64,000 nt of DNA from Apus apus (Eukaryota > Chordata > Aves > Apodiformes > Apodidae), in contig NC_067282.1 in assembly GCF_020740795.1 (NCBI RefSeq), forward strand, positions 171,894,274-171,958,273. The letters are read 5' to 3'. Numbering within the stretch: position 1 is the stretch's first letter; each line of letters begins with the position of its first letter. Under the pieces are notes generated by a model. That model was not told where the DNA came from. It did no database searches and was given only the letters and a program-made list of their open reading frames with translations. Below, in pieces: positions 18,401-51,600 of this stretch. Both the position numbers and the translations under genes were made by a program.

Positions 18401-21400
18401 TATAGAAGCCCTTGTTTAATAAAATCATACATGTAGAATACATGTAAACACAACATAAGAAGAAAGGAGTACTAGTTCTTTCTTCTCTCAGTGTATGTCA
18501 ACAGTTCCCAAGAACTAATTAATACTATTACTGATCACAGTACTGGCATACACATAGAAAAACAATTGCATAAAGAAAATCTGACCATATTCTTACCAGC
18601 AAACTGTAAAACTGCTTAATCAAAACCGAAACTACTCTCAGCAAACGCATACAGATGGGAAAGTATGGTTTTTCCACTGGTGCTGGGGAAGATGACATGC
18701 TGGAACCTTGCCTGAATTTGATATTTGGGGAGAAGAGCTTTATAACAAGAGGGCACACCCTTTCTTTAAGAAGAAAACTGAATTCCTGATGCTGAAAGAG
18801 AAAACAGCACAAATTATAAGCAAATTTAATTGGTACCAGTAGCTCTGATGATGCATCTTATTTACGTTTACTGTTATGATAAAGCCCTCTGAAGTCATGT
18901 AAATCTTGGTGTAAATTACACAATCAGGAAATGAAACGGAAGAATGGCAGACACCATTAACAAGCTATGATGAAATGACATGGTCAGGTTCATACCATGC
19001 ACCCCTCTTCTTGTATTTTGCAAATTAAAATAGGCTGCTAATACATAATTTATTAGATATTTAATTTTTAGTCTAGATACTCTTAGCAAAAATGTGTTAT
19101 TTATATGCAGTAGATCCACACAAGTCCTAGTTATGACTCCTCCTGCTTTGCAAGTGGGATGAGGTTACACTTTTCATAGAAATAACAATGCCACAAAGGT
19201 GTCATATATCATGCAGGATAAAAAAAATGCATCTTTGGAGGATATATAAATGGGAAAGAGTGAAACAGAATACAATATGCTTTACAAAATACACAACACA
19301 AACCAAGTGTATGAGAACAGAAAAAAGTGGGCAAAAAGAACACAGTACTTTTCTATCACAAAAACCCAACAGGTACAAGCTGCAAATCCTTTTGGTAAGC
19401 AGTACTCATGCTAAATTAAATAGGAGTTAATGAAGCATAAATTTTACTAGTCCTGTGAACAAAAGTGTTCCAATTTTCTCTCCAAGAACTACTCACTTGT
19501 AGAAAGACTTGAGGAAAGTCATTGAGGACTGACTCAAGAAGTTCAAGGCCAAATGTTCGGGTCATTTCTGTCATACCCACGAGCCAATAGGGAGCATCAG
19601 CATTAACTAACTGACAAAGATCCTTAAAAAGAAATACAACATTTACATTCTGTGCACATTCCTGTACTGGCATACGTTTTCTAAGTCTACAACAAAATTT
19701 ACACTTTCTCCCTCTCCCTGAAGAATTTTCAAATTTCAACATAACTTTTCCTGAGATACTTCTTTCACATAAATTATTAAGCAAAAAAAGTTTCTAAAAG
19801 AATTATTAAACTTTGCTGTTATCCTTGTAGCAATTGTGTTAATTCTGCCCTCAAAAATATCCAATTTGCGAAGGCAAGAAGATTTTTATTGGTGAGATGA
19901 ATACAACTACTATTTTATTCCACTTTAATACACAATACCAAGCCCACGAAGCACGACTGAACTACAGTAGCAGTATTTGGCTCATGGAAAAAATAATATT
20001 GATTTTAATGCAGACATGAATGCTTAGCTATTATTTAAGATACATAGTAAAAGATTTTCCTAGGCCACTTTGTCTTCATTTTCCAGTCATAACCCTGGGA
20101 TACAACATACATTGCCAATTACAATAAATGCACATAAGAAAGACTGAGACTCTGGCCAAGGACCTTGTCAGTATGTCAACAGGAAAGTTTTGAGATTTCT
20201 TACAGAGATGAACAAGCACCCAATCATAATGTATGCACCCAATGCAAATGTATAAATATAAGCTCCCAACTACCTGAAAAAGCATATATGCATCTTTAGC
20301 ACATGGCTTGAGTGTACTGACAGATCTTCTGTTACTGTTTCCTTGAACTGCAACTGGCTGGTCAACAGTATCTGTGTAACAGAAAAACAGTTTTGTGAAC
20401 AAAGGAACTGTTGAAAATCAAGTACCTTTTAAGTGTTCTTAAAAAGATTCTAGGAGGATGACCAGGTGGTTCTTCTGCAACTTATCATGTCTACGAAAAT
20501 AAACATTAGATTGAATAACAAAGATCAGGAATACCAAGCATATCTTTCCAATAGAAGTTCTCTTCAAAACTATTACTGCCATGTATTTCACAGTAACCTC
20601 AGTTACCTTCACCTTAAATGACACTTTCACCTCAAATTCCTTCACAATACTAACCTGAAGACCAGTTCTCACTGCTTGAAAAAAACCTAGGTTTTACATA
20701 TTGCTGTAGTGACATGGACTTGACACAATGGCTAAGGATTTCATCTCCTTTGAATGCAAGTAAATGTATAAAGAAAGCAAAAAAGAATAAAGCCTATGAC
20801 TTTTTAAGTACTATTTATAGACTTTCTACTACTTTTTTATCTGAAAAATCAACACACATTTTGATGTGGGTGCAGAAAACAGGTTAATACCAGCAAGGAG
20901 AGCAAGAAGCACACCCACCTTTGTATCGTTCATCTTCAGCGACCACCCTCTCAAATACCACCGTAACGACCTGCCGCACCGTGGCTGCCGCAGTGTTGTT
21001 TGTGATATTATCTTTAGTGAAGTGCAGTCGAAAACAAAGTACAATGGCCTGGAAGGGGGGAGAAAAAAATAATCCCCTTACAACAGTATATTTTCACCTT
21101 TTAGCTAAGACACCTGATTGAGGAACGTTCTCCACTACAGTTTGTCAAAAGGTTGCCTGAAAAAAAATTGTTTTTATCATTCTGGTTTTTCAAATATAAA
21201 ATGAGTTTTATGGCTTACTGTAGCCAAATACCTCTTTACTAATCCTCCCCAAAGGCAATCTAGAAGTGGTATTAACTGAAGACATTATGATGTGTCAATA
21301 AAACTACAATTGTCATACAGAGAATACACAGTAATCAACCACATAAAACAACTTTCATGAATACTAATGTCAAAAGGGTATTAGGATTACACAGTTAATC

Positions 21401-24400
21401 ACAGAAAGGTCAGCCAACTCCAAAGCTAAAATGCCATTCCTCACCTACATTAAATCCCAATACTTTTACAGCCACATTGCCTAGACTGCAATTATTCCTC
21501 TCTAAGGCGCATGTTTTAATGTGTCACTGTGCTGGCAGTGATCTGAATACTGTTTCCCATTGGATTTCATGTTACCTCTAACACACAGTTTAATACTTAA
21601 TTCATACTTAATTTTGAAAATGAACATCTGTATGTGCAGTGAAACCTGTATTTCTTGTTCTTTTGTCCTTGTTTGGGTTTCTTGCACTTGCATGAATCTC
21701 AATCACACCCAGCCATAGTGCTGCATGCTCTGAGACATACAAGATTCAGAATTTTTTTTGCTTCTTTTTCGTGTAAATGATTTGTGGGCTTTGCCCAGAT
21801 GGTATCTCCATGGATTCTGAATTTTTACAACACAATCATACACCTCTGGACTTTCAGAAGATACTGCATTATTCTCTAGGTTAATCTAACAGTATTTGCC
21901 TGTATTAAGGGGCTTTTCAAGATGGTTTGCCAGTAATTTTCTTCAAGCTGAAACATATTCTGATATTCTCTAAGAACTTTTCAACTTTAAATAAACCAAC
22001 TTTCAGACATTCCTCGAAAGAATCTTAAGGGAAACAAACCAACAAATGCTAAATTTTAGCCATGTCAATTATTGTTTATATTTGGTTAAGTGAGAAACTC
22101 TAGTAATTTAAGGCTTGGATAGTATCAAGAAATGTCACAGGACAGGTTTTTTTCTTACCCCTGTCAGAGCCTACCCAGATTTTACTAGATGTCTCAATGT
22201 ACTAAATTTTAACTTGCACTAAGGAAATCGTTAGAAGTACAACAATTAGATTCTCCAGTATTTGTATTATGTGGCCCTGCTTCTGGATCAGGACACAAGA
22301 AACGAAAAAGACATGCTGGGAAAGACTTTCCTGAGTTATTTGACACTGCTGTACCCACATGCTCTTGTGATTGGTGTCCAAAAGGAGGAAGTTTCTAAAC
22401 ATGAGAGAGAGGCAGGGAGAGAGGGGAGAGAGGCAGGGAGGGACGGAGAGGATATATGGAGGCAGGGGAAGAAGAATAAATGAAGGCAGTGATGAGAAGT
22501 AGCTTCTATTCTGCCATTTATATGTTTTATAAATTTTCTCTTATCCTCCTGCCTTATGCAGATCTTTAGCTTCATTTTCCTTTCATGTTTTTCCTTCCCT
22601 TGGTTAAGCAGATTAATGTAGCCAGGGTCTGGCGGCCGGAAGATCTCGTGCTGTACGGAAAGACAGGGCCCCTCCCCCCCCCCTCAGGACAGCCAATAGT
22701 GTATAGACTGTGATGTAAGCAAAACGGATGTGACGTTACTCAAGCTATATAATGCCGTGCCGCATGGCAATAAAGGCCATTTTGCCATCCACCACATTGG
22801 TGTCTGTGTGCATATGGACCGAGCGACCAGGGGTTGGTCGCCGTGCCGTTCCTGAACCAGGTCGCCTTGCCTTTCCGAAGGCAACAAGTGGTGCCGAAAC
22901 CCGGGAGTCGAGGGATCTCGCCCCGAATCGGGAAATCGCCTGGAATCTGGTGAACGGCGGCCGGAGCGGTAAAACCAGCCCGGCGGACGCCCCGGACCAA
23001 CAAGGAGGAGGACGCTCCGGGACCAACGAGGATTGAGGCACTCGTGAAGGTCGAAATGGAAACCCTTGTGAAGGTCGTATTACAAATACATAAGCAGTGG
23101 GGGATTGATTGTAAGCCCAAAGATTTTACTCTTGCTGTTGCGAGACTTTTGCAAACCGGGGTCATTGAACAGCCGGTGGATATTCTCCACCCTGAGGTGT
23201 GGGACAAATGTACTAAGGCTTTAGCCAAGGAGACAATGTCTTCGGGTAGTGGAAAAAACCTGAAATCGTGGGGGAGGGTCGTGCAGGCTCTGGAGAAAGC
23301 CCTACGAGAACAGGAGACCTGGAGGGAGGCAAAGAATTGTTTAAAGGTCATCCCGAAACTGGGAGTCGGGGCGGCCACACAGACCTTGCACCCCCCGGGC
23401 GGTGACGATTCCGCCGAGCCCGGGGATCCGGGGGGAGGCGAGACAAAAACATTGGAATCTCCGCCCGCTTTGACCCCCCCGCGCAGCCCCAGCCCCGATC
23501 GGCGGGGGGGCGGCGCGGCCCCACGGTCCCCGGAGCCACCACGGTCTCCGGACCCCCCACGGTCCCCGGAGCCCGACCCGCTCACGGAGAGGCTTAGACG
23601 AGCCGTATCCTTTTGGCGCGGGCTGGCTGAAGAGGCCAGGGGCGCCACGGAGATACCGGGGTCTGAGGAGCTCTGGGCGGAACCGCCGCCATGTGCGCCC
23701 CAAGATGGCGCCGAGCGCAAGAGGAGGGAGCGGGGCGAAGGCGCACGTGGCGGGGGCGGGGAGGAGGCGCCGGCATCGCTGGGCGTGCACGAGCGGCAGG
23801 GGGAGGGGGGCGTGAGCAAAGGGCGGAGCCAATCAGAGCCACCCGCCTTATAGGGCAAACAGCCCGCCCCGCAGGGGGCGGGGTGAGCCAGGAGGGAGGG
23901 AACCGGCCACTCGCAGAGGAGGGGGGCGGGGCCGGAGTCCGCCCGCCCATGACGGAAGGGGGCGGGGCCGGAGCCCGACAAAAGGGCACTGGCAACCGGA
24001 AGCGGCCGGTCAGTCGAGCTCTGACTTCGGGTCAGACACGGACTGGAGTGAGGAGTTCGCAACGGATTCAACTTCAGAGGAAGAGGAAATGGGAATAAAT
24101 ACAGTCAAAAGCAAATATATCCCAATCCAAAATAAAAATAAAATCCGAAATAAAAAAGGACTGCAAAGGGAAGAATTCCCTTTCACTGATTGGAAAGGAA
24201 TAAAAATTGCATGTGCTGATTTGGTCCCACCAACCACACTAGCATTCCCGGTCCGGCTAACAGAGGGGGGACAAAGGGTCTTTTCACCAATAAACCTTAA
24301 GGACATACATACAATTATTAAGGCAATTGCGGACAAAGGACTCAATTCTGCTATGGTCACCAGCCTCATAGATGGCCTTTTTGGGGGAGATGATCTGCTC

Positions 24401-27400
24401 CCATTTGATATAAATCAAGCCTGTAGAATGATCTTTGACGGAGCAGGGATGTTTGTGTTTAAACAAGAATGGGAGGACCACTGTACAAGGCAACTAGCCC
24501 AGGTGACCGGGGCAGACCACCCACTCTACGGCTCCACACTGCAGCGGCTGATGGGTAAAGACCCAACAATGATCACCCCCCAGGCGCAGGCCCAGGGCCT
24601 GCGGGTCCATGAAATTATGGCAACCACTCGCGCAGCCAGAGAAGCCATTCACGCAACTTCCAGAACTGTTGTCAAGCCATCGCCGTGGTCCTCGATTAAG
24701 CAAAAGGAAAGTGAGAGTTTTGCACAATTTGTGGATCGCCTCCAGGCAGCAGTTGACTCCTCAACCCTGCCCGCGGAAGCAAAAGGCCCAGTTGTCGCAG
24801 ACTGTTTACGTCAGCAGTGTAACTCAGTAACCAAAGAAATCATACGTTCACTGCCAGTGAGGTCGAGTATCGCGGACATGATTAGGCACGTCGCAAGGGA
24901 AGAGCATCTAACCCCAATTCAGACTGCTGTTAATACCATGATGGCTAATGTGATGGCATGTTTTAAATGCGGTCAGGCGGGGCATATGGTAGCAAACTGC
25001 CCTCGGTTGGGGGACCCACCAACAGCGCTCCCCCCGCACCAGAATCGACCCAGAGGACTCTGTTGGGTTTGTGGAAAGAAGGGACATTTCGCCAGGGAAT
25101 GCAGATCTAGAAACCAGGGAAACGGGAGGGGGAGAGGGCACCAGGGCCGTGCACAGCCCTCTCCCACGTGGGACATGAGGCGGCCCAACCATACCAACCG
25201 CGGATGGGGTGGAATGCATCCGAACCCGCAGCACCCTCGAGAAGCAACCAACTTTATGGCTCAACCAACAATCCAGCCAAACCTGCCCCTACCTCAGGAA
25301 CAGCAAGGACCACCTTTTGGGGGCGAGACCCCAGGGTGGCCCTGGCAGTGAAATGTGATAGCCCGCCAGTGGTTTGGGGGATCTGTTCCCTCTGCAATAC
25401 CTTAAATGATATCACCATTAGTGTTCCCTTTTTGATTGACACTGGAGCAGATGTTACAGTCATTCCCGAAACAAACTGGCCCCAGCACTGGAAATTGGAG
25501 AATGCCCCCATGGTGGGCGGAGTCGGAGGACTAACCCAGGCTCGAAAGAGTGCTCAATTAGTAGCGATCACGCTTCACACGGAAAAAGGACCAGAGAAAA
25601 CCATCACCCTCTTCCCATATGTCATGCCTGGAGTCCCACCCCTGTTGGGAAGGGACGCTCTAGCCCTTTTGAAAGCCAGGGTGACAAATTTACCGTGAGG
25701 GCCACTGCCGCACACCCACTTCCACCGATCAGACAGATGTGGAAATCGTCTGACCCAGTGTGGGTCGAGCAGTGGCCCCTGCCAAAGCCTCGAATGGACG
25801 CTCTTCTTGAACTAGTTGACCGAGAACTACAACGAGGTCACATAGAGCCTTCCACCAGCCCATGGAACACCCCAGTTTTCGTAATCCCCAAACGGTCTGG
25901 TGAAGGGTTTCGTCTCCTTCATGACCTGCGAGAAGTAAATAAGAGGATACAACCAATGGGTCCTGTCCAAACGTTATTACCTATGAACTCCATGATACCA
26001 GAAGGACAACCTTGTGCCGTCCTTGATATTAAGGACTGTTTCTTTTCAATACCCCTGCATGAAGAGGACAAGGAGCGGTTTGCTTTTTCTGTCGTGTTCC
26101 CAAACAGCCAACGCCCTAACCTGCGCTTCCAGTGGAAAGTGCTGCCTCAGGGAATGATCAACTCACCTACCATCTGCCAGATTGCAGTGGATCGGGCGCT
26201 GGCACCGGTTCGGCACAGTGACCCGACAGCGACTATCATTCAGTACATGGACGATATCTTGATTGCCGCGCCGTCAGGAAGTCAGGTGGACCACCTGGTA
26301 TCAGCAGTTTCGGAAACTTTAAAAACAAACGGGTTCGAAATTGCGAGCGCAAAAGTCAAAAGAGGACCATGTGTAACCTTTCTGGGAGTGGGGATCACCA
26401 GTTCTTATATAACACCCCCCCAAATTAAAATCCGTCGGGACATCAGAACACTCCACGACATGCAACAATTAGTGGGGTCCTTGCAATGGCTCCGCAATAT
26501 TGTCCTGATACCCCCCGAAATCATGGCCCCCCTGCATGATCTTCTAAAAGGAAAGAACCCATGGGAACAAAAAACTCTGACAACAGAAGCAATGAACTCC
26601 CTCGATTTCATCGAGCAACAGGTATCATCAAGCACGCTTGCCAGGTGGAACCCAGGTGTTCCACTCGACCTGTACGTACATTTCACAAAGGGAGGGGGAG
26701 TAGGGACACTGGCCCAGGGGCCACCTGAAAAAGCCCAGCCAATACAATGGATAGTCCTAGGAAAGCCATCACATGCATTCTCTCCAGGAGTCGAGTGCCT
26801 TGGCAATCTCATCATGAAAGGTAGAAAGCTCGCCCTAAGACACCTAGGCATCGAACCTGCCAGGATATTCCTACCCTTCCGCAAACAGCTCCCAATACAA
26901 TCAGTGACCATGTCAGAGTATTTAGCTACAGCCCTTGTCGGATTTGGTGGAGAAGTTCGGTACGCTGCAAAGCCCCCCTGGACTCAAATGCTGGAAATCG
27001 TCAACATTGACATCCCACAGAAGATCATGGACCGGCCCCAACAGGGACCAACAGTCTTCACAGATGCATCCTCAACAACCTCAACCGCGGCGGCAGTGTG
27101 GCAATCAGGAGAAGAATGGCACAGCATCAAAATGACCGATTGTGCGCTTTCAGTTCAGCAGCTAGAAGCGATGGCCATAGTGCTGGCATGTGGACTGTTT
27201 CCAACGGAACACCTTAACATAGTGACCGATTCGATGTTCGTGGCCAAGCTTTGCTTAGCCATGTCAGGACCCAGCGTGTCAACATCAGCAGTAGCCCTAA
27301 TGCTGGAAGAAGCACTCTCTTCTCGAGAGGGCACCATATCGGTCATCCACATCAACAGCCATAACCCGGTCAAAGGGTTTTTCCAAACTGGCAATGACAA

Positions 27401-30400
27401 AGCAGACGCCGCTGCAAAAGGAGTGTGGGCGCTAAGGGATGCCCGGCAGTTACATGAGTCTCTTCACATCGGGGCCAAAGCGCTAGCGAAGAAATGCGGG
27501 ATTTCTGTCACTGATGCGAAACACGTAGTTGCTACATGTCCTCACTGTCAGAAAGCACCACTGTGGTCCAGTGGAGTCAACCCCAGAGGTCTCAAGGCCT
27601 CTGAAGTGTGGCAGACAGACTTTACACTCTGTCAGTTGCTGAAACCTCGAGCGTGGCTAGCAGTAACTATGGACACCTATAGCGGAATGAGCGTAGCCAC
27701 ACAACACCCCAAAACCGACTCCAAAGCGACCATCCAGCATTGGATAACGGTCATGGCATGGCTTGGTATCCCTAGTCAGATCAAAACAGACAATGGCCCA
27801 AATTTTGTTTCCAAATCAGTCCAGACATTTGCTCTGAAATGGGGTATCACCCTAATACATGGCATTCCATACAATAGCACAGGACAAGCCATAGTCGAAA
27901 GAGCAAATCAAACCCTGAAAACTAAGTTAGAGGTGCTGGCAAAGACAGAGGGTTTTGTCAATGTCATCCCCTCAGGAGACCAAGCACGCCTGCTAGCGAC
28001 TGCTCTTTTAGCACTGAATCAATTTCCTAGAGGGGAAGAGATGAATAGCCCTACACAAAAACATTGGGCCACTCAAGCGCTAGAAGAAGGCCCGTTGGTT
28101 ATAATTAGAAATGAGCTAGGGGAATGGGAACAAGGGTGGAGGCTAGTCCTTACAGGGCGAGGGTATGCTGCAGTCAAAAAAGATGGGAAAGTCAAGTGGT
28201 GTCCGCTTAAGTCTATTAAGCCTGACCTCCAGAATGAAACTAATGAAAACTGTAAGTTTTTATCCACAGAACCGGATCACCAGACGTCCTCGTAACCTGC
28301 ACGCCCCGGCAACGAGAGAGGACGGCAAGTCAACAAGCATGCTGTCTGCATCCGAGAGTCTCACGCTGGCGGACTCCAAACAACAACGATATAGCCCCCG
28401 TGGGAGGAGGCTACAATGTATTTGTGTAATCTTGATTCTAGCGCTAGTCACTAAAGGACAGGCAGAACCAGAGTACCACCCCCATCGTCCATTCAGGTGG
28501 GTCCTACAAGACCCTGACAAATTGATAAAGGAAAACTTAACAGCAGGTACCCCGACTTTTATGGTAACAGTTGGTGACTTATTCCCCGGGTCAGCGCTGG
28601 TCAATAAACCCGGATGCGAACCATCATGCAAACCAATATGGGGAACATATTGGTGCCCCAGCTCAAACCCAGGAAAGAGCTATTGCAACTATCCAGGTTA
28701 TTATTTTTGTGGGTATTGGGGATGTGAGACAATTGTAACAAGTGATAGATGGAAACCGGAGACAGATGACGAATTTTTGCGGGTAACCTGGGGACCACAT
28801 GGGTGTAAACATCCAACTTTTGCGGTGGATGGAGTGATATATCGTAGAGGCAAATATACTTGCACCCATTTGAAGTTGGAAATCTTACATCCAAATGATG
28901 CGGGATGGGCTATAGGGAAAAAGTGGTCAGTATTTCTTCACTACGGTGGCACAGATCCAGGAAGGGTGATAAAAATTATCAGGCTTATACCACAAGCACC
29001 CCAAGCAGTCGGGCCTAACCCGGTTCTTAACCCACGAATACCCACAACCGAAGCCATCACACCCTTAACGACACACACCACCAATATCATCGATAGGAAC
29101 CCTCTTTGGAAAATGATAGAAGCTAGCTACCAAGTGCTGAACAAAACCAACCCGAATCTCACGGAGCACTGCTGGCTGTGTTATGGAGTAAAACCACCCT
29201 TTTATGAGGCCATAGGAGTCAGCAACACACCCATATGGGTAAATAGTACAAATCCGGCTCAATGTAACTGGAACATAGAAAAGCAAGGGATTACACTAGC
29301 ACAGGTGGTGGGAAGTGGCATATGTATAGGTAAAGTCCCAATACACAAAAAACAACTGTGTATTAATATGATACAAGGTAAAATCCCTGCAAAGTGGTTA
29401 GTACCAGCCACCAATTCCAAGTGGGTTTGTTCTATTATGGGAGTTACACCTTGCTTGTTGTTGGACAAATTTGACGAATCCTCAGAATACTGTGTCCAGG
29501 TAGCTATAGTCCCCAAAGTCTTTTACCATCCCGAAGACGTTGTCTATGACTCTCTAATTACCCCTGAACACCATCTGTTAAAACGAGAGCCTTTTACAGC
29601 AATAACAATAGCTACTCTAATGATCCTAGGAGGTGCGGGAGTAGGTACAGGAGTGGCATCATTGGTCCAACAAAATAAAGAATTTAATGCCTTGAGAACA
29701 GCAGTAGATGAGGACCTGGCAAGAATTGAACAATCAATAAGTGCCTTAGAACAATCACTTAGATCATTATCTGAAGTTGTGTTGCAAAATCGGAGAGGGT
29801 TAGACCTTATGTTTTTACAACAAGGGGGAGTGTGTGCTGCACTAGTGGAAGAATGCTGCGTATACGCGGACCACACTGGAATCGTGAGGGACACTATGGC
29901 CAAATTGCGAGAGGGATTGGAAAAACGGAAAAGAGAAAGAGAGGCACAACAAGATTGGTTTGCAGCATGGTTCAACCATTCACCATGGCTGAACACCTTG
30001 ATATCTACCTTGATGGGACCGATCACAATGATCATGATAGCATTAATCTTTGGACCCTGCATACTGAACAGACTCGTGTCATTTGTCAGGAGCCGGTTAG
30101 AGACAGTTAACATCATGTTGGTAGAGCATCAACAATTGCTCTAGGAATATTTTTATACCCTGTTACCCCCAAACTACCTCAAGTTCAACATGCCTTGTAT
30201 TTTTCTATTCAAGTTTACAGTATATATTTTTGAGATTGTTATACGTTTAAATTTTTTAAGATTGTTATAAAGTTTAAGATAGGAATAGGATGTTTTATAT
30301 CTAGGATTTTTATACCTGTAGTTTTTTAGAACTGTTATATTTAGCCAATTTAATTATGCATAGGGAGGGGGGAAATGTAGCCAGGGTCTGGCGGCCGGAA

Positions 30401-33400
30401 GATCTCGTGCTGTACGGAAAGACAGGGCCCCTCCCCCCCCCCTCAGGACAGCCAATAGTGTATAGACTGTGATGTAAGCAAAACGGATGTGACGTTACTC
30501 AAGCTATATAATGCCGTGCCGCATGGCAATAAAGGCCATTTTGCCATCCACCACATTGGTGTCTGTGTGCATATGGACCGAGCGACCAGGGGTTGGTCGC
30601 CGTGCCGTTCCTGAACCAGGTCGCCTTGCCTTTCCGAAGGCAACAGATTAATAATGATTTTAATACCCACACATTTAAAGAACTAGGAAGTTATTTCATT
30701 AAGACCAGATGCAAAGAAAAACTGACAACTTTCCACCAGAGGGTATGTTTTCAAAATTTTTCCATTGTATTCTCTCTCTCAATAAATAAATAAACAAACA
30801 AACAAATAACTCTGCTATTAAACCAATATACTGATAATACAGCAAAATAAAAACCCAGCAATTTAGAATAATTTAAATCAAAGTATCCTTCTTAAGTTGA
30901 AAAAAAATTATAAAATGTAATGTAGAAGAGCAACTTACTTTAGACAGAACTTCACAGATCAGTAAAAATGTTTAATATAAGATACTTCAAAGACAAGTAT
31001 CTTATAACTTAAGATTAAAATGGATCAGAATCCTTATTTTTTACCTTCCTTAAAATGGTACATTTAAAATAATGTAATAAAATTATCCCTCTTCTGACTG
31101 AAAGAGCAGTAGCTGGACTGCTTCCAAAAAAGAGATTTAAGGCAGGGTGGCAGGCAGCTTCTCCTAATATTTGCTTTATTAGGGAGAGCTTACAATGTGC
31201 TGTGTGCTCTGATTTCACTATCAAACATGCATATTATCAAATTAGCAGGTAAGAAGGACAGGCATTAGCCCAATATTGTTATTTAAAGTTGCGATTAAGA
31301 AAACTATTATTGAAGAGGAATTAAAATACAGATTGCAAGCTAAAACAAAAAATACAGAAGGAAGCTAAAACAAACCCTGTTTTCAGAGTCTAGATATCAA
31401 GACATGAGAGACATATCAATCAAAAAAGCCACTACTTCCAAATGCTTAATTTGTAAAATTTCTCCCTGTATTTCCTCTTGGATCTGGTAAGTACTTCAGT
31501 CGGCACTAACAAATTCTTACCTTGGATAGTGCTTCATCATGCACAACTGTATTGGTTGTTAAAAGTACAAGAACTGTCTGAAGCAATTTAAGTTCTTCAA
31601 GACTATTTTCCATCAGTTGCCAAAGCATATTAATAATGTTTCCTGCTGCAGCCTACAAAGAAATGGTATTTTAAAACAATTACGATGCTTACATACTGGT
31701 AACATCACGTGTACACATGGAAGAACAGCACTCTCATAAATGTGTATCATAACTGAATATGCCTGTTTGTCTTTACCACAGGACTACATTGAGAACATAC
31801 ATCAAAATTCATTGTCACAAGCTTCCCAAAATATCTGTAAAGAACTGATGACAGAAACCTCTTAATGCGTAGTACAAATCAAAGTGTGTACTTAATTTTC
31901 CAGATAGAAAAGACAGTACAAACACGTTTTACCCTCAAAATTCATCCATATCAGAGCAAAATAGGTGTAATTTTACATTATGCAAGCACAACTCAAAGCG
32001 TATTTTAACAGTATTATTTTAATCAGCTTCTTAACACACTATATATGCGGTACCATCACATGACATGACATTTACAGTGGCAGAGAACATACATCAATTT
32101 TATCTTAATTTTAAAAGTAACTTGTGTGAAAAACATAATACATAATGATAACACAGAATTTTGTGGATGCCACCTTAGGAATTATATTTATCAAGGACCA
32201 TTACACGTTCTGATCCTGTACTGTAAGATTGCAAACTAAATGAGATGGTTTGAATTTTGATTAATTTCCTTCTGGAGTTCACTAATGTTTCCTCACCTCT
32301 TTCTTTTTTTCTTTCATAGTCAAAAAGGTTTTATTTTAAATTACAATTTTTGAAAAACAGATACCAGATAAGTATTTTGCAGACTATGCTCATTAGAATA
32401 TAAACAGCCTCCCAAAAAAACCCAACAACATTCACCTGCAGTTTGACACCTGTATTTCTCACACTGAAATATTTTTGTATTTATATAAAAATTGATCTTA
32501 CCTCTGAAACAACTTCATGGGACATGAGTCTCTGTATGGCTGCTAGACACAGCTGAGTGATCTTTGGTTCCTTTGTTCCACAACCCATTAGAAAAGGCTG
32601 AACTACCTCTGAGCTGTTCTCTTTCAATGCTTTCAAAAAGAGATACGGAAGAAGTCAATGTTTGGTACGTTGAAGAATACAATGCAAAACACATTAATCA
32701 TACACATTAACAAAAAGCAACCTCCAGTCTTGGAAATGTGGGATTTACTCTCGCACCACAGGGAAAAACCCAGTGAAGACAGACACTGGGCTGCCACAGC
32801 TCACTTCTGCAATTACCCTGGTTGAGGCTCAAATCCCAAGCACCTTCTCCTTTACAGTCTCAAGTGACTTTCTCTTTCCAAATACAAATTAGCCATTTAG
32901 AGTGCATTTGGTTAAAAAGAATCTGTAAGGATCTGCCCACTCCAGAACTTTGTGGCCTTGTAGCAGTGACCAGCCTCAGGCTGGTAGCCTCCCCCTCCTG
33001 CTTTGCTTCCACTTGGTACCAAATTCAAAAGCAACACAAAGTGAGGCACACAGACACATATCAAAGCATGTGGCACAATGCAAAATGCCACTGACAAAAC
33101 AAGAGAAAGACACTGGACTGTTCATATCTTAGGTACATAGACCTGGCCACGAATTTTTCAGCCACTGCTTTAGTGAGAAAAGGCAGTTTCTTAAAACGAA
33201 GCATTGCCAGGAGAAAACACAAGCTTCATGAACCTTTTGGTTTGGGATTTTTTTTCAGGAAAAAAACACTTTACAACGAATACAAGATTCCACACTGACA
33301 ATTTACAAAGTTCTCCTCCATAAACATAATTCTAGAAGCCTGAGATAAACTTCATAAAATTAAAAAGGAAGAAAATATTTCTGGAGGATGAAAGGAAAGC

Positions 33401-51026: not shown

Positions 51027-51600
51027 GGCGCCAGCGGGCCGGCCCCGGGCCGGGCGCTGTTCCGAGCGAGCACGGGCAGCACCTCCTCGCTCCGCGGCCC
51101 CGGCCGACACGTCTGCGCCCGACACCGGAACCCGTCAGCCCCGGCCCCGGCCCCTCCCCGCGGCTCCCCCGCTCCCACAATGCCGGGCGCCGCGCGTCAG
51201 GCCCGCTTCCGCACACACGGCGCGGGGGCGGCACCGCGACCCGGCCCGGCCCGCCGCCCGGGGCCCGCCGTGCCGGCCGTTGTTGCGCCTTCTTCGCTGC
51301 GTCGCTGTCCCCGTGCCCGGCCGGCATGAGAGGCAGGAGGCGGGTCCGGGGCCCGGGCCGTCGGGGTCCGGCACCGCCGGGGAGCTGCGGGCGGAGAGGG
51401 AACAACGTGTTGCGTCGGCGAAGAGTGGCCGGGGGGGGTGGTGAGGCGGGCTGGCCTGGCCTTGGGGCCCCTGCCCCTGGGCCTCGGCAGCCACCGCCCC
51501 GGGCTGAGTCCGGCTCTCGGGGAGAGGTCGGCACCGAGTGCGGTTTGGAGAACAAAACGCTGTTACGTTTTCCTTGTGAATCGTGAACTTTGCTTGCTCC
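50390..51600. promoter_or_regulatory. CpG island / MON2 promoter
   Basis: About 1.2 kb of strongly GC- and CpG-rich sequence between AT-rich flanks, spanning MON2 exon 1, its 5' UTR and upstream DNA. No TATA box is seen near the start of MON2, as is usual for CpG-island housekeeping promoters. Several overlapping long open frames on both strands reflect the absence of AT-rich stop codons, not genes. Divergent non-coding transcription from such islands is common but cannot be shown here. Confidence 0.85.
50916..51026 (-). CDS. MON2: MON2 coding exon 1 (residues 1-37)
   Basis: Start codon in a good context (gcgccATGt), followed by [18 protein letters not shown]. The exon ends ...PPVKE in phase 0 at a GAG|GTGAGG donor. 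It lies inside the CpG island. An in-frame ATG exists 33 codons upstream (51125), but the residues between are Ala/Arg/Gly-rich and do not belong to the known protein, so I kept the conserved start. Confidence 0.96.

What the first reader, a model, noticed from the sequence alone, without database searches (positions are those of the whole stretch)
22617..30645. Very young, nearly intact endogenous retrovirus with identical LTRs
Both 270-bp LTRs read identically by eye, down to a 10-C run. The GATTAA target duplication is perfect, and pro, pol and env are open with all catalytic and fusion motifs present. LTRs are identical at insertion and diverge afterwards, so this copy is recent and may be polymorphic or have replication-competent relatives in the species.
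Basis: partly seen in the sequence, partly recalled or inferred. Interest (0 to 1): 0.9.

Follow-up and report, generated by a model that had tools for sequence, protein, structure and literature searches.

The report
Swift retrovirus with hitchhiking deleted offspring
A bird genome, likely the common swift's, carries a retrovirus that likely inserted recently and whose gag gene is broken, beside at least 34 related copies that have lost the envelope gene, many of which likely spread on proteins supplied by other copies, much as a well-known mouse element is reported to do.

Summary
The two 270-bp LTRs are identical, the GATTAA duplication is perfect, and pro, pol and env are open. But gag is broken (matrix and capsid in different frames), and zero differences in 270 bp bounds the age only to about 1-4 My (recalled bird rates). 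Eight of 23 other elements dated here also show no LTR substitution.

The element belongs to a published kind: avian class II retroviruses related to alpharetroviruses but with a gamma-type envelope. It lies antisense in an intron of a DCB-domain gene, probably MON2, in a genome that is likely the common swift's.

The new part is the family around it. Two different deletions remove env, both starting shortly after the pol stop. At least 21 loci share a 1.9-kb deletion that fuses the capsid N-terminal domain in frame to RNase H-integrase; the junction is open in 14 of 14 copies read. All four combinations of this deletion with the commoner env deletion exist, so the copies recombine. The architecture matches mouse IAP I-delta-1 elements and likely arose independently. 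Mobilisation in trans is inferred, not shown.

The parts
22611..22616 (.). target-site duplication GATTAA, 5' copy
22617..22886 (+). 5' LTR, 270 bp, TG...CA; TATAA at 22748, AATAAA at 22769
22889..22906 (+). primer-binding site, complementary to a tRNA-Phe 3' end (tRNA identity recalled)
   Evidence: sequence; confirming pattern search not answered
23056..23853 (+). gag, matrix part (Retro_M), frame 1
23816..25351 (+). gag, capsid-nucleocapsid part (Gag_p24, Gag_p24_C, zinc knuckles), frame 2; out of frame with matrix
25117..25123 (+). GGGAAAC, predicted gag-pro -1 frameshift site in gag frame, followed by a predicted stem (-36 kcal/mol in 90 nt; no shuffle control)
25111..25698 (+). pro (aspartyl protease), own frame
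25686..25692 (+). AAATTTA, predicted pro-pol -1 frameshift site in pro frame, followed by a predicted stem (-42 kcal/mol in 90 nt; no shuffle control)
25440..28295 (+). pol (RT, RNase H, integrase), open
28165..30144 (+). env, 659 aa, gamma-type (TLV_coat, CX6CC, fusion peptide right after KR)
24621..26517 (+). end points of deletion A (1.9 kb), found at 21 other loci; it joins capsid-ORF residue 178 to pol residue 275 in frame. The stretch is present in the window copy
28318..29940 (+). end points of env deletion B, found at 27 other loci. The stretch is present in the window copy
28419..29970 (+). end points of second env deletion B' (7 other loci). The stretch is present in the window copy
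26747..27884 (+). end points of pol deletion C (3 of the copies read). The stretch is present in the window copy
30362..30375 (+). purine-rich tract next to the 3' LTR, putative polypurine tract
   Evidence: sequence; function inferred from position
30376..30645 (+). 3' LTR, identical to the 5' LTR
30646..30651 (.). target-site duplication GATTAA, 3' copy
20932..21051 (-). exon match of host DCB-domain gene (profile 138-177), downstream of the insertion in gene order
31497..31652 (-). exon match of host DCB-domain gene (profile 94-146), upstream of the insertion in gene order; one stop inside, as when a match runs past an exon end
32427..32633 (-). exon match of host DCB-domain gene (profile 50-117); one stop inside
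50901..51029 (-). likely first coding exon of the same gene, MON2-like N-terminus (name recalled)
   Evidence: no PDB relative

Best explanation
This is a likely recent, env-bearing provirus of an alpharetrovirus-related family with a gamma-type envelope, with gag broken between matrix and capsid, in a genome that is likely the common swift's and that also holds at least 34 env-less relatives and 21 loci (most of them env-less) sharing one 1.9-kb deletion that fuses capsid in frame to RNase H-integrase, deleted copies that likely spread on proteins supplied by other copies. Shown here: structure, identical LTRs and duplicated target site; broken gag; shared deletion end points at loci with different target-site duplications; the in-frame fusion; all four combinations of the gag-pol deletion with env deletion B. 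Inferred: recency; deletions arose by template switching during reverse transcription; deleted RNAs were co-packaged with fuller RNAs, which both moved and recombined them; env loss turned a probably infectious lineage into a mainly intracellular one; the fusion protein may help its own RNA in cis, as reported for mouse IAP I-delta-1. The window copy itself probably cannot supply a whole Gag from one frame, so it would also need others' Gag.
For: LTRs 0/270 different, perfect duplication. LTR search of the same genome: 262 candidates, 40 scored, all at least 97% identical. Of 24 elements with LTR pairs compared, the window included, 9 have no substitution and 21 have at most 4; 20 of 24 have a perfect 6-bp target duplication, all 20 different in sequence. 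Shared end points: A in 21 full-junction matches of 40 (40 of 76 candidates scored), B in 27 of 43 (40 of 79 candidates scored), B' and C in others. Direct repeats at the end points: 10 of 11 bases for A, 4 of 4 for B. Capsid-pol fusion open across the junction in 14 of 14 copies, reaching pol residue 845 or beyond uninterrupted in 10 of 14. Pfam on one fusion ORF: Retro_M, Gag_p24, RNase_H, Integrase_Zn, rve, no RVT_1. All four A/B combinations: neither (window), A only (L040), B only (L009), both (L011). Gag and pol trees mix the classes, and L044 joins L016 in gag (100/99) but L014 in pol (88/80). Mouse precedent: PMC6466679 and PMC7411935 (passages).
Against: No expression, particle or transposition data. 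dN/dS in pol does not show that the fusion is kept by selection: shared variants 0.39, single-copy 0.52, Fisher p 0.41, and variants shared only within deletion-A copies are 8 nonsynonymous to 3 synonymous. Open frames in young copies are expected without selection. The LTR sample leans to young copies: 9 of the 24 pairs were taken because both LTRs were among the 40 best matches to the window's, and most others came from gag or env matches at 97% or more. The trees are weakly resolved (1 of 16 and 4 of 20 inner branches starred) and rooted at the midpoint only. Matrix to capsid is one open frame in only 4 of 19 deleted copies, which might mean residual assembly errors in this G+C-rich stretch. 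Four of 24 elements show no perfect duplication here: for three (C63, C65, L046) the LTR hit or the fetched stretch was cut short, for L040 the flanks do not match over 6 bases. The host name rests on one contig-length match.
Confidence: 0.77

Rival explanations
1. One reading: an ordinary recent copy of a replication-competent virus, with env-bearing relatives doing the spreading by reinfection.
For: Env is open over its full length in 3 of 8 env-bearing copies examined, the window included. Three of 5 env-bearing copies with compared LTR pairs have 0-2 differences. Env comparisons of the pair window/C33 with four other copies give omega 0.55-0.67, weakly consistent with env having been used.
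Against: gag is broken here. Env-bearing copies are the minority: 8 loci at 98% or more by env piece against at least 34 env-less. Two full-size env-bearing copies are older, 15/266 and 8/238 LTR differences. Among the four other env copies omega is 0.77-0.96, not different from 1, and window against C33 is 1.07 on 11 changes.
Confidence: 0.15
2. The LTRs are identical because of gene conversion, and the insertion is old.
For: Gene conversion between LTRs cannot be excluded from one copy.
Against: The target-site duplication is unmutated, pol and env are open, and 8 of 23 other elements also have no LTR substitution; conversion at all of them is unlikely.
Confidence: 0.04
3. The deleted copies are passive DNA duplicates or defective debris, not a mobilised non-autonomous subfamily.
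For: No transposition was observed; many young ERV families hold deleted copies.
Against: Deletion-A loci lie on 9 contigs; 12 of the 14 read show a perfect 6-bp duplication, each different, and LTR pairs differ at 0-4 positions in all 14: the signature of separate retroviral integrations.
Confidence: 0.04

Closest known systems
Avian class II ERVs with gamma-type env, basal to alpharetroviruses (described in Henzy and Johnson 2013, PMC3758190, passages read)
   Same: Class II pol on the alpharetrovirus side of the tree, gag-pol mixing alpha and beta features, gamma-type TM, several bird orders
   Different: No sequence of those elements was compared by name; the swift copies and their deletion derivatives are not described in the passages read
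Mouse IAP I-delta-1 elements (PMC6466679, PMC7411935; passages)
   Same: 1.9-kb deletion of part of gag and pol giving an ORF for a gag-pol fusion; env-less in nearly all copies read; many copies with near-identical LTRs
   Different: Different retroviral lineage (pol 35% identical to a Chinese hamster IAP); dependence on trans proteins and the cis effect are untested here; one copy couples the deletion with a full env
EAV-HP and lymphoproliferative disease virus
   Same: Named alpharetrovirus-side Pol relatives (47% and 44% identity)
   Different: Distinct clade in the Pol tree
Guineafowl predicted protein P0221 (LOC110401160)
   Same: Matrix and capsid followed directly by RT thumb, RNase H and integrase, with no RVT_1
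   Different: EAV-HP-like family (67% to EAV-HP pol); junction near capsid-ORF residue 250 / pol 190, so a separate event, if not a gene-prediction product

Membership tests
Avian class II ERV with gamma-type env | Pol in class II, next to alpharetroviruses | tested here: met
   47% to EAV-HP, 44% to LPDV, 34% to SRV-1; tree groups it with the EAV-HP and LPDV side at 100 (32 hand-picked rows). PDB: best match over RT is 7sr6, labelled only Polymerase; best integrase match is 7jn3, labelled only integrase, and RSV integrase 1c0m follows
Avian class II ERV with gamma-type env | gag-pol with both alpha and beta features | tested here: met
   Retro_M matrix and a capsid matching the Rous sarcoma virus capsid, but pro in its own frame with two predicted -1 sites
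Avian class II ERV with gamma-type env | Gamma-type TM: CX6CC, fusion peptide at the TM N-terminus without flanking cysteines | tested here: met
   (by eye)
Avian class II ERV with gamma-type env | Found in several bird species | tested here: met
   Pol 67-91% in crane, shorebirds, eagle, swallow, finch, thrush and unnamed sources, several over part of the length only
Alpharetrovirus genus (sensu stricto) | Avian gamma-type env with cysteine-flanked internal fusion peptide (PMC3758190) | tested here: not met
   no cysteine between the KR site and CX6CC (by eye)
Alpharetrovirus genus (sensu stricto) | pro in the gag frame (recalled) | tested here: not met
   gag mod 3 = 2, pro mod 3 = 1
Betaretrovirus (type D) | Pol clusters with SRV/MPMV | tested here: not met
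   SRV-1 falls outside with CHIAP
IAP I-delta-1-like non-autonomous element (deletion-A copies) | About 1.9-kb deletion joining gag to pol in frame | tested here: met
IAP I-delta-1-like non-autonomous element (deletion-A copies) | Needs Gag and Pol in trans; fusion acts in cis | not testable with these tools
   RVT_1 and protease are missing from the fusion, so trans supply is inferred
IAP I-delta-1 (membership by descent) | Derived from IAP | tested here: not met
   separate clade from CHIAP: it works like I-delta-1 but is not one

The most novel reading that the evidence does not exclude
A bird retrovirus lineage has independently evolved the trick of mouse IAP I-delta-1: a 1.9-kb deletion makes a Gag-RNaseH-integrase fusion without reverse transcriptase or protease, the deleted element outnumbers its env-bearing parents, and it swaps deletions with them by recombination, in a wild swift where the takeover is recent and may still be going on. 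With the guineafowl protein this would make three separate origins, suggesting that the fusion itself gives the deleted RNA an advantage.
Probability: 0.4. Interest if true: 0.75.

Novelty: new variant of a known kind. Interest (0 to 1): 0.52.

Why it matters
Env loss is thought to turn infectious retroviruses into genomic spreaders (PMC6466679, passage), and mouse I-delta-1 shows that a gag-pol deletion can do even better. This genome appears to hold the steps side by side: env-bearing copies, some of them old, two env-loss deletions, and gag-pol deletions combined with them and reshuffled. If the fusion arose more than once, why such a crippled element wins becomes a comparative question rather than a mouse oddity.

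Tried and rejected
The viral-contig scan with Env gave no relative (records of this genome may be left out there). No tRNA gene was found in the window. The likely first host exon had no PDB relative; the host gene was instead found by the DCB family search. dN/dS on pol and env was tried as a test of selection and is inconclusive. Gene conversion, segmental duplication and a purely infectious mode were considered and set low, for the reasons given under rivals. Calling the provirus nearly intact was rejected because of gag. A reading of the Env cleavage site as damaged was rejected because some near relatives share it. The chromosome W test of contig C33 (family PF13907) did not complete.

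Literature: no paper in the library holds Apus apus, endogenous retrovirus and LTR together. Searches for avian gag-pol fusions or env loss (10 of 12 and 10 of 27 papers listed) and for swift LTR elements (10 of 191 listed) were judged by titles and starts of abstracts only; none of those listed announces these elements. Passages of the cordon-bleu/zebra finch paper PMC6523648 and of PMC4272516 do not describe them either. The library covers open-licence papers only, so this is no proof of absence from print.

Row choices: the Pol tree used 32 hand-picked protein hits plus the window, out of 120 listed and 326 found. The pol-segment tree used 18 copies plus the window; L018, L019, L048, C65 and C33:9.66, which lack or split that stretch, were left out. 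The gag tree used 22 copies plus the window. LTR hits in C63 and C65 covered LTR positions 1-236 only, and one LTR of L046 positions 1-256. Two of the 21 deletion-A loci were not read.
Full report
Observation. The two LTRs are 270/270 identical and flanked by a perfect GATTAA duplication. Behind the 5' LTR stands a primer-binding site that matches the 3' end of tRNA-Phe (identity recalled), and a purine tract precedes the 3' LTR. pro, pol and env are open, with the expected Pfam domains and motifs. gag is interrupted: matrix is in frame 1, while capsid and nucleocapsid are in frame 2. pro has its own frame. A GGGAAAC in the gag frame and an AAATTTA in the pro frame, each followed by a strong predicted stem (no shuffle control), are likely -1 frameshift sites.

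Host and place. One contig of the window's genome, C5, is 115,508,478 bases long. The same length is printed for the contig of an Apus apus protein, so the host is likely the common swift. Exon matches of a DCB-domain gene lie on the minus strand at 20932-21051, 31497-31652 and 32427-32633; the search gave 7 matches in this genome, 3 of them here, and 0 of 14 control genomes rang. Two of the three contain a stop, as when a match runs past an exon end. The provirus therefore sits antisense in an intron of that gene, probably MON2 from the recalled N-terminus at 51029.

Lineage. Pol is 91% identical to an unnamed ENA protein, 86-89% to crane, shorebird and eagle copies over 59-82% of its length (one crane hit 82% over 36%), 67-83% to songbird copies, 47% to EAV-HP, 44% to LPDV and 34% to SRV-1. 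The Pol tree puts the window in a supported set of 10 rows with crane, Calidris, Haliaeetus and unnamed rows, with the songbird rows outside it (32 hand-picked rows). Env is less alike: 57% over 96% of its length for the best hit, 81% over 55% for another. Env is gamma-type: CX6CC, and a fusion peptide directly after the KR site with no cysteine before CX6CC. Henzy and Johnson (PMC3758190, passages) describe class II gag-pol with gamma-type env in several birds, basal to alpharetroviruses. The element fits that kind in each feature tested. High Pol identity between bird orders suggests virus transfer between orders, but this was not tested against host dates.

Age. Zero differences in 270 bases gives a 95% upper bound of 1.1% divergence, or 1.2-3.7 My for recalled rates of 4.6 to 1.5e-9 per year. 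The window's private branch in the pol segment 26530-28295 (0.93%) predicts 5 LTR differences if it arose after insertion; none is seen (P about 0.007), so most of those changes predate insertion. Of 24 elements whose LTR pairs were compared, the window included, 9 have no substitution and the others 1 to 15. Twenty of the 24 have a perfect 6-bp target duplication, all different. The sample leans to young copies, because many were chosen from the 40 best LTR matches.

Deletion classes. Mapping the fetched copies to window coordinates gave shared end points: A 24621/26517, B 28318/29940, B' 28419/29970, C 26747/27884, and D in one copy. Combinations seen: none (the window; the two other full-size copies were read in pieces only), B, A+B, A+B', B+C, A+B+C, A with env, B' without A, D with env. 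Junction searches of the genome found A at 21 loci, after which only half-junction matches follow (40 of 76 candidates scored), and B at 27 loci plus one partial (40 of 79 candidates scored). Seven further loci have B'. That makes at least 34 env-less loci. An env piece is found at 98% or more at 8 loci, the window included, and at 93% over part of its length at a ninth; one search shows 9 matches with only the 3' side of the B junction. Of the 21 A loci, 13 also carry B, 5 carry B' and 1 carries env, and 2 were not read. Both env deletions begin shortly after the pol stop at 28295 and spare the 3' end, so pol can stay open: it is one frame over nearly its whole length in 2 of the 3 copies read that have deletion B alone.

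The fusion. Deletion A joins capsid-ORF residue 178 to pol residue 275 in frame in 14 of 14 copies read. In 10 of 14 the open frame runs uninterrupted to pol residue 845 or further; one more gets there with deletion C, and three stop earlier. The fusion keeps the capsid N-terminal domain, RNase H and integrase, and in 3 of the 14 the whole matrix ORF in the same frame. It loses the capsid C-terminal domain, nucleocapsid, protease and the RT active site (YMDD is at pol residue 184). Mouse I-delta-1 is described as having a 1.9-kb deletion of part of gag and pol giving a gag-pol fusion ORF, as needing proteins in trans, and as being helped in cis by its fusion (PMC6466679 and PMC7411935, passages). 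The match in size, position and outcome is close, while descent is separate. A guineafowl predicted protein has a similar layout with another junction in an EAV-HP-like family; it may be a gene-prediction product.

Recombination. All four combinations of A and B exist, and likewise of A and B'. The gag tree joins L044 (A+B') with L016 (A+B) at 100/99, while the pol tree joins L044 with L014 (A+B') at 88/80. In both trees, which are rooted at the midpoint only, the two full-size env-bearing copies on C4 and C63 (in gag also C65) lie outside, and the window copy lies among the deleted ones. The simplest reading is co-packaging and template switching between full and deleted RNAs.

Against. No expression or mobility data exist here. 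Selection tests are weak: in pol, shared and single-copy variants do not differ (p 0.41); in env, omega is 0.55-0.67 between the pair window/C33 and four other copies (p 0.015-0.11, not independent), 0.77-0.96 among those four, and 1.07 between window and C33 on 11 changes. Matrix to capsid is continuous in only 4 of 19 deleted copies, which may be real or may reflect assembly errors in a G+C-rich stretch.

Verdict. The provirus is a new member of a known kind. The env-less and RT-less derivatives around it, with their I-delta-1-like fusion, are the part worth attention.

Noticed in passing
G000 contig C33 (10.97 Mb, 1.0% of the assembly): Strong excess of family copies: 7 of 21 deletion-A loci, 6 of 27 deletion-B loci and 9 of the 40 best LTR hits (binomial p 1e-9, 2e-7, 2e-10, the three sets overlapping). 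It may be the W chromosome, described as an ERV refugium in birds (PMC8310711, passages); the test with CHD1 did not complete.
   Followed up: partly
P0221, guineafowl LOC110401160: Predicted matrix-capsid-RNaseH-integrase fusion without RVT_1 in an EAV-HP-like family, junction different from the swift one.
   Followed up: partly
L018, about 34 kb beyond the window end on the same contig: A second copy of the family (deletions B and C) about 75 kb downstream of the window provirus, start to start; its LTRs differ at 6 of 269 positions.
   Followed up: yes
L041/L042 (C33:9.66 Mb): Copy with env deletion B' and about 1.3 kb of sequence between parts that match window 27517 and 27510, which finds no match in the provirus; not identified.
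   Followed up: no
P0107, unnamed ENA protein (26 member sequences, longest contig 8979 bases): Nearest Pol relative (91%) comes from unnamed ENA assemblies, the longest contig being of about proviral length; its source could not be traced here.
   Followed up: no
G000, env piece matches mostly at 77-83% over part of the piece and capsid matches at 82-86%: One or more older, more diverged related families also live in this genome.
   Followed up: no
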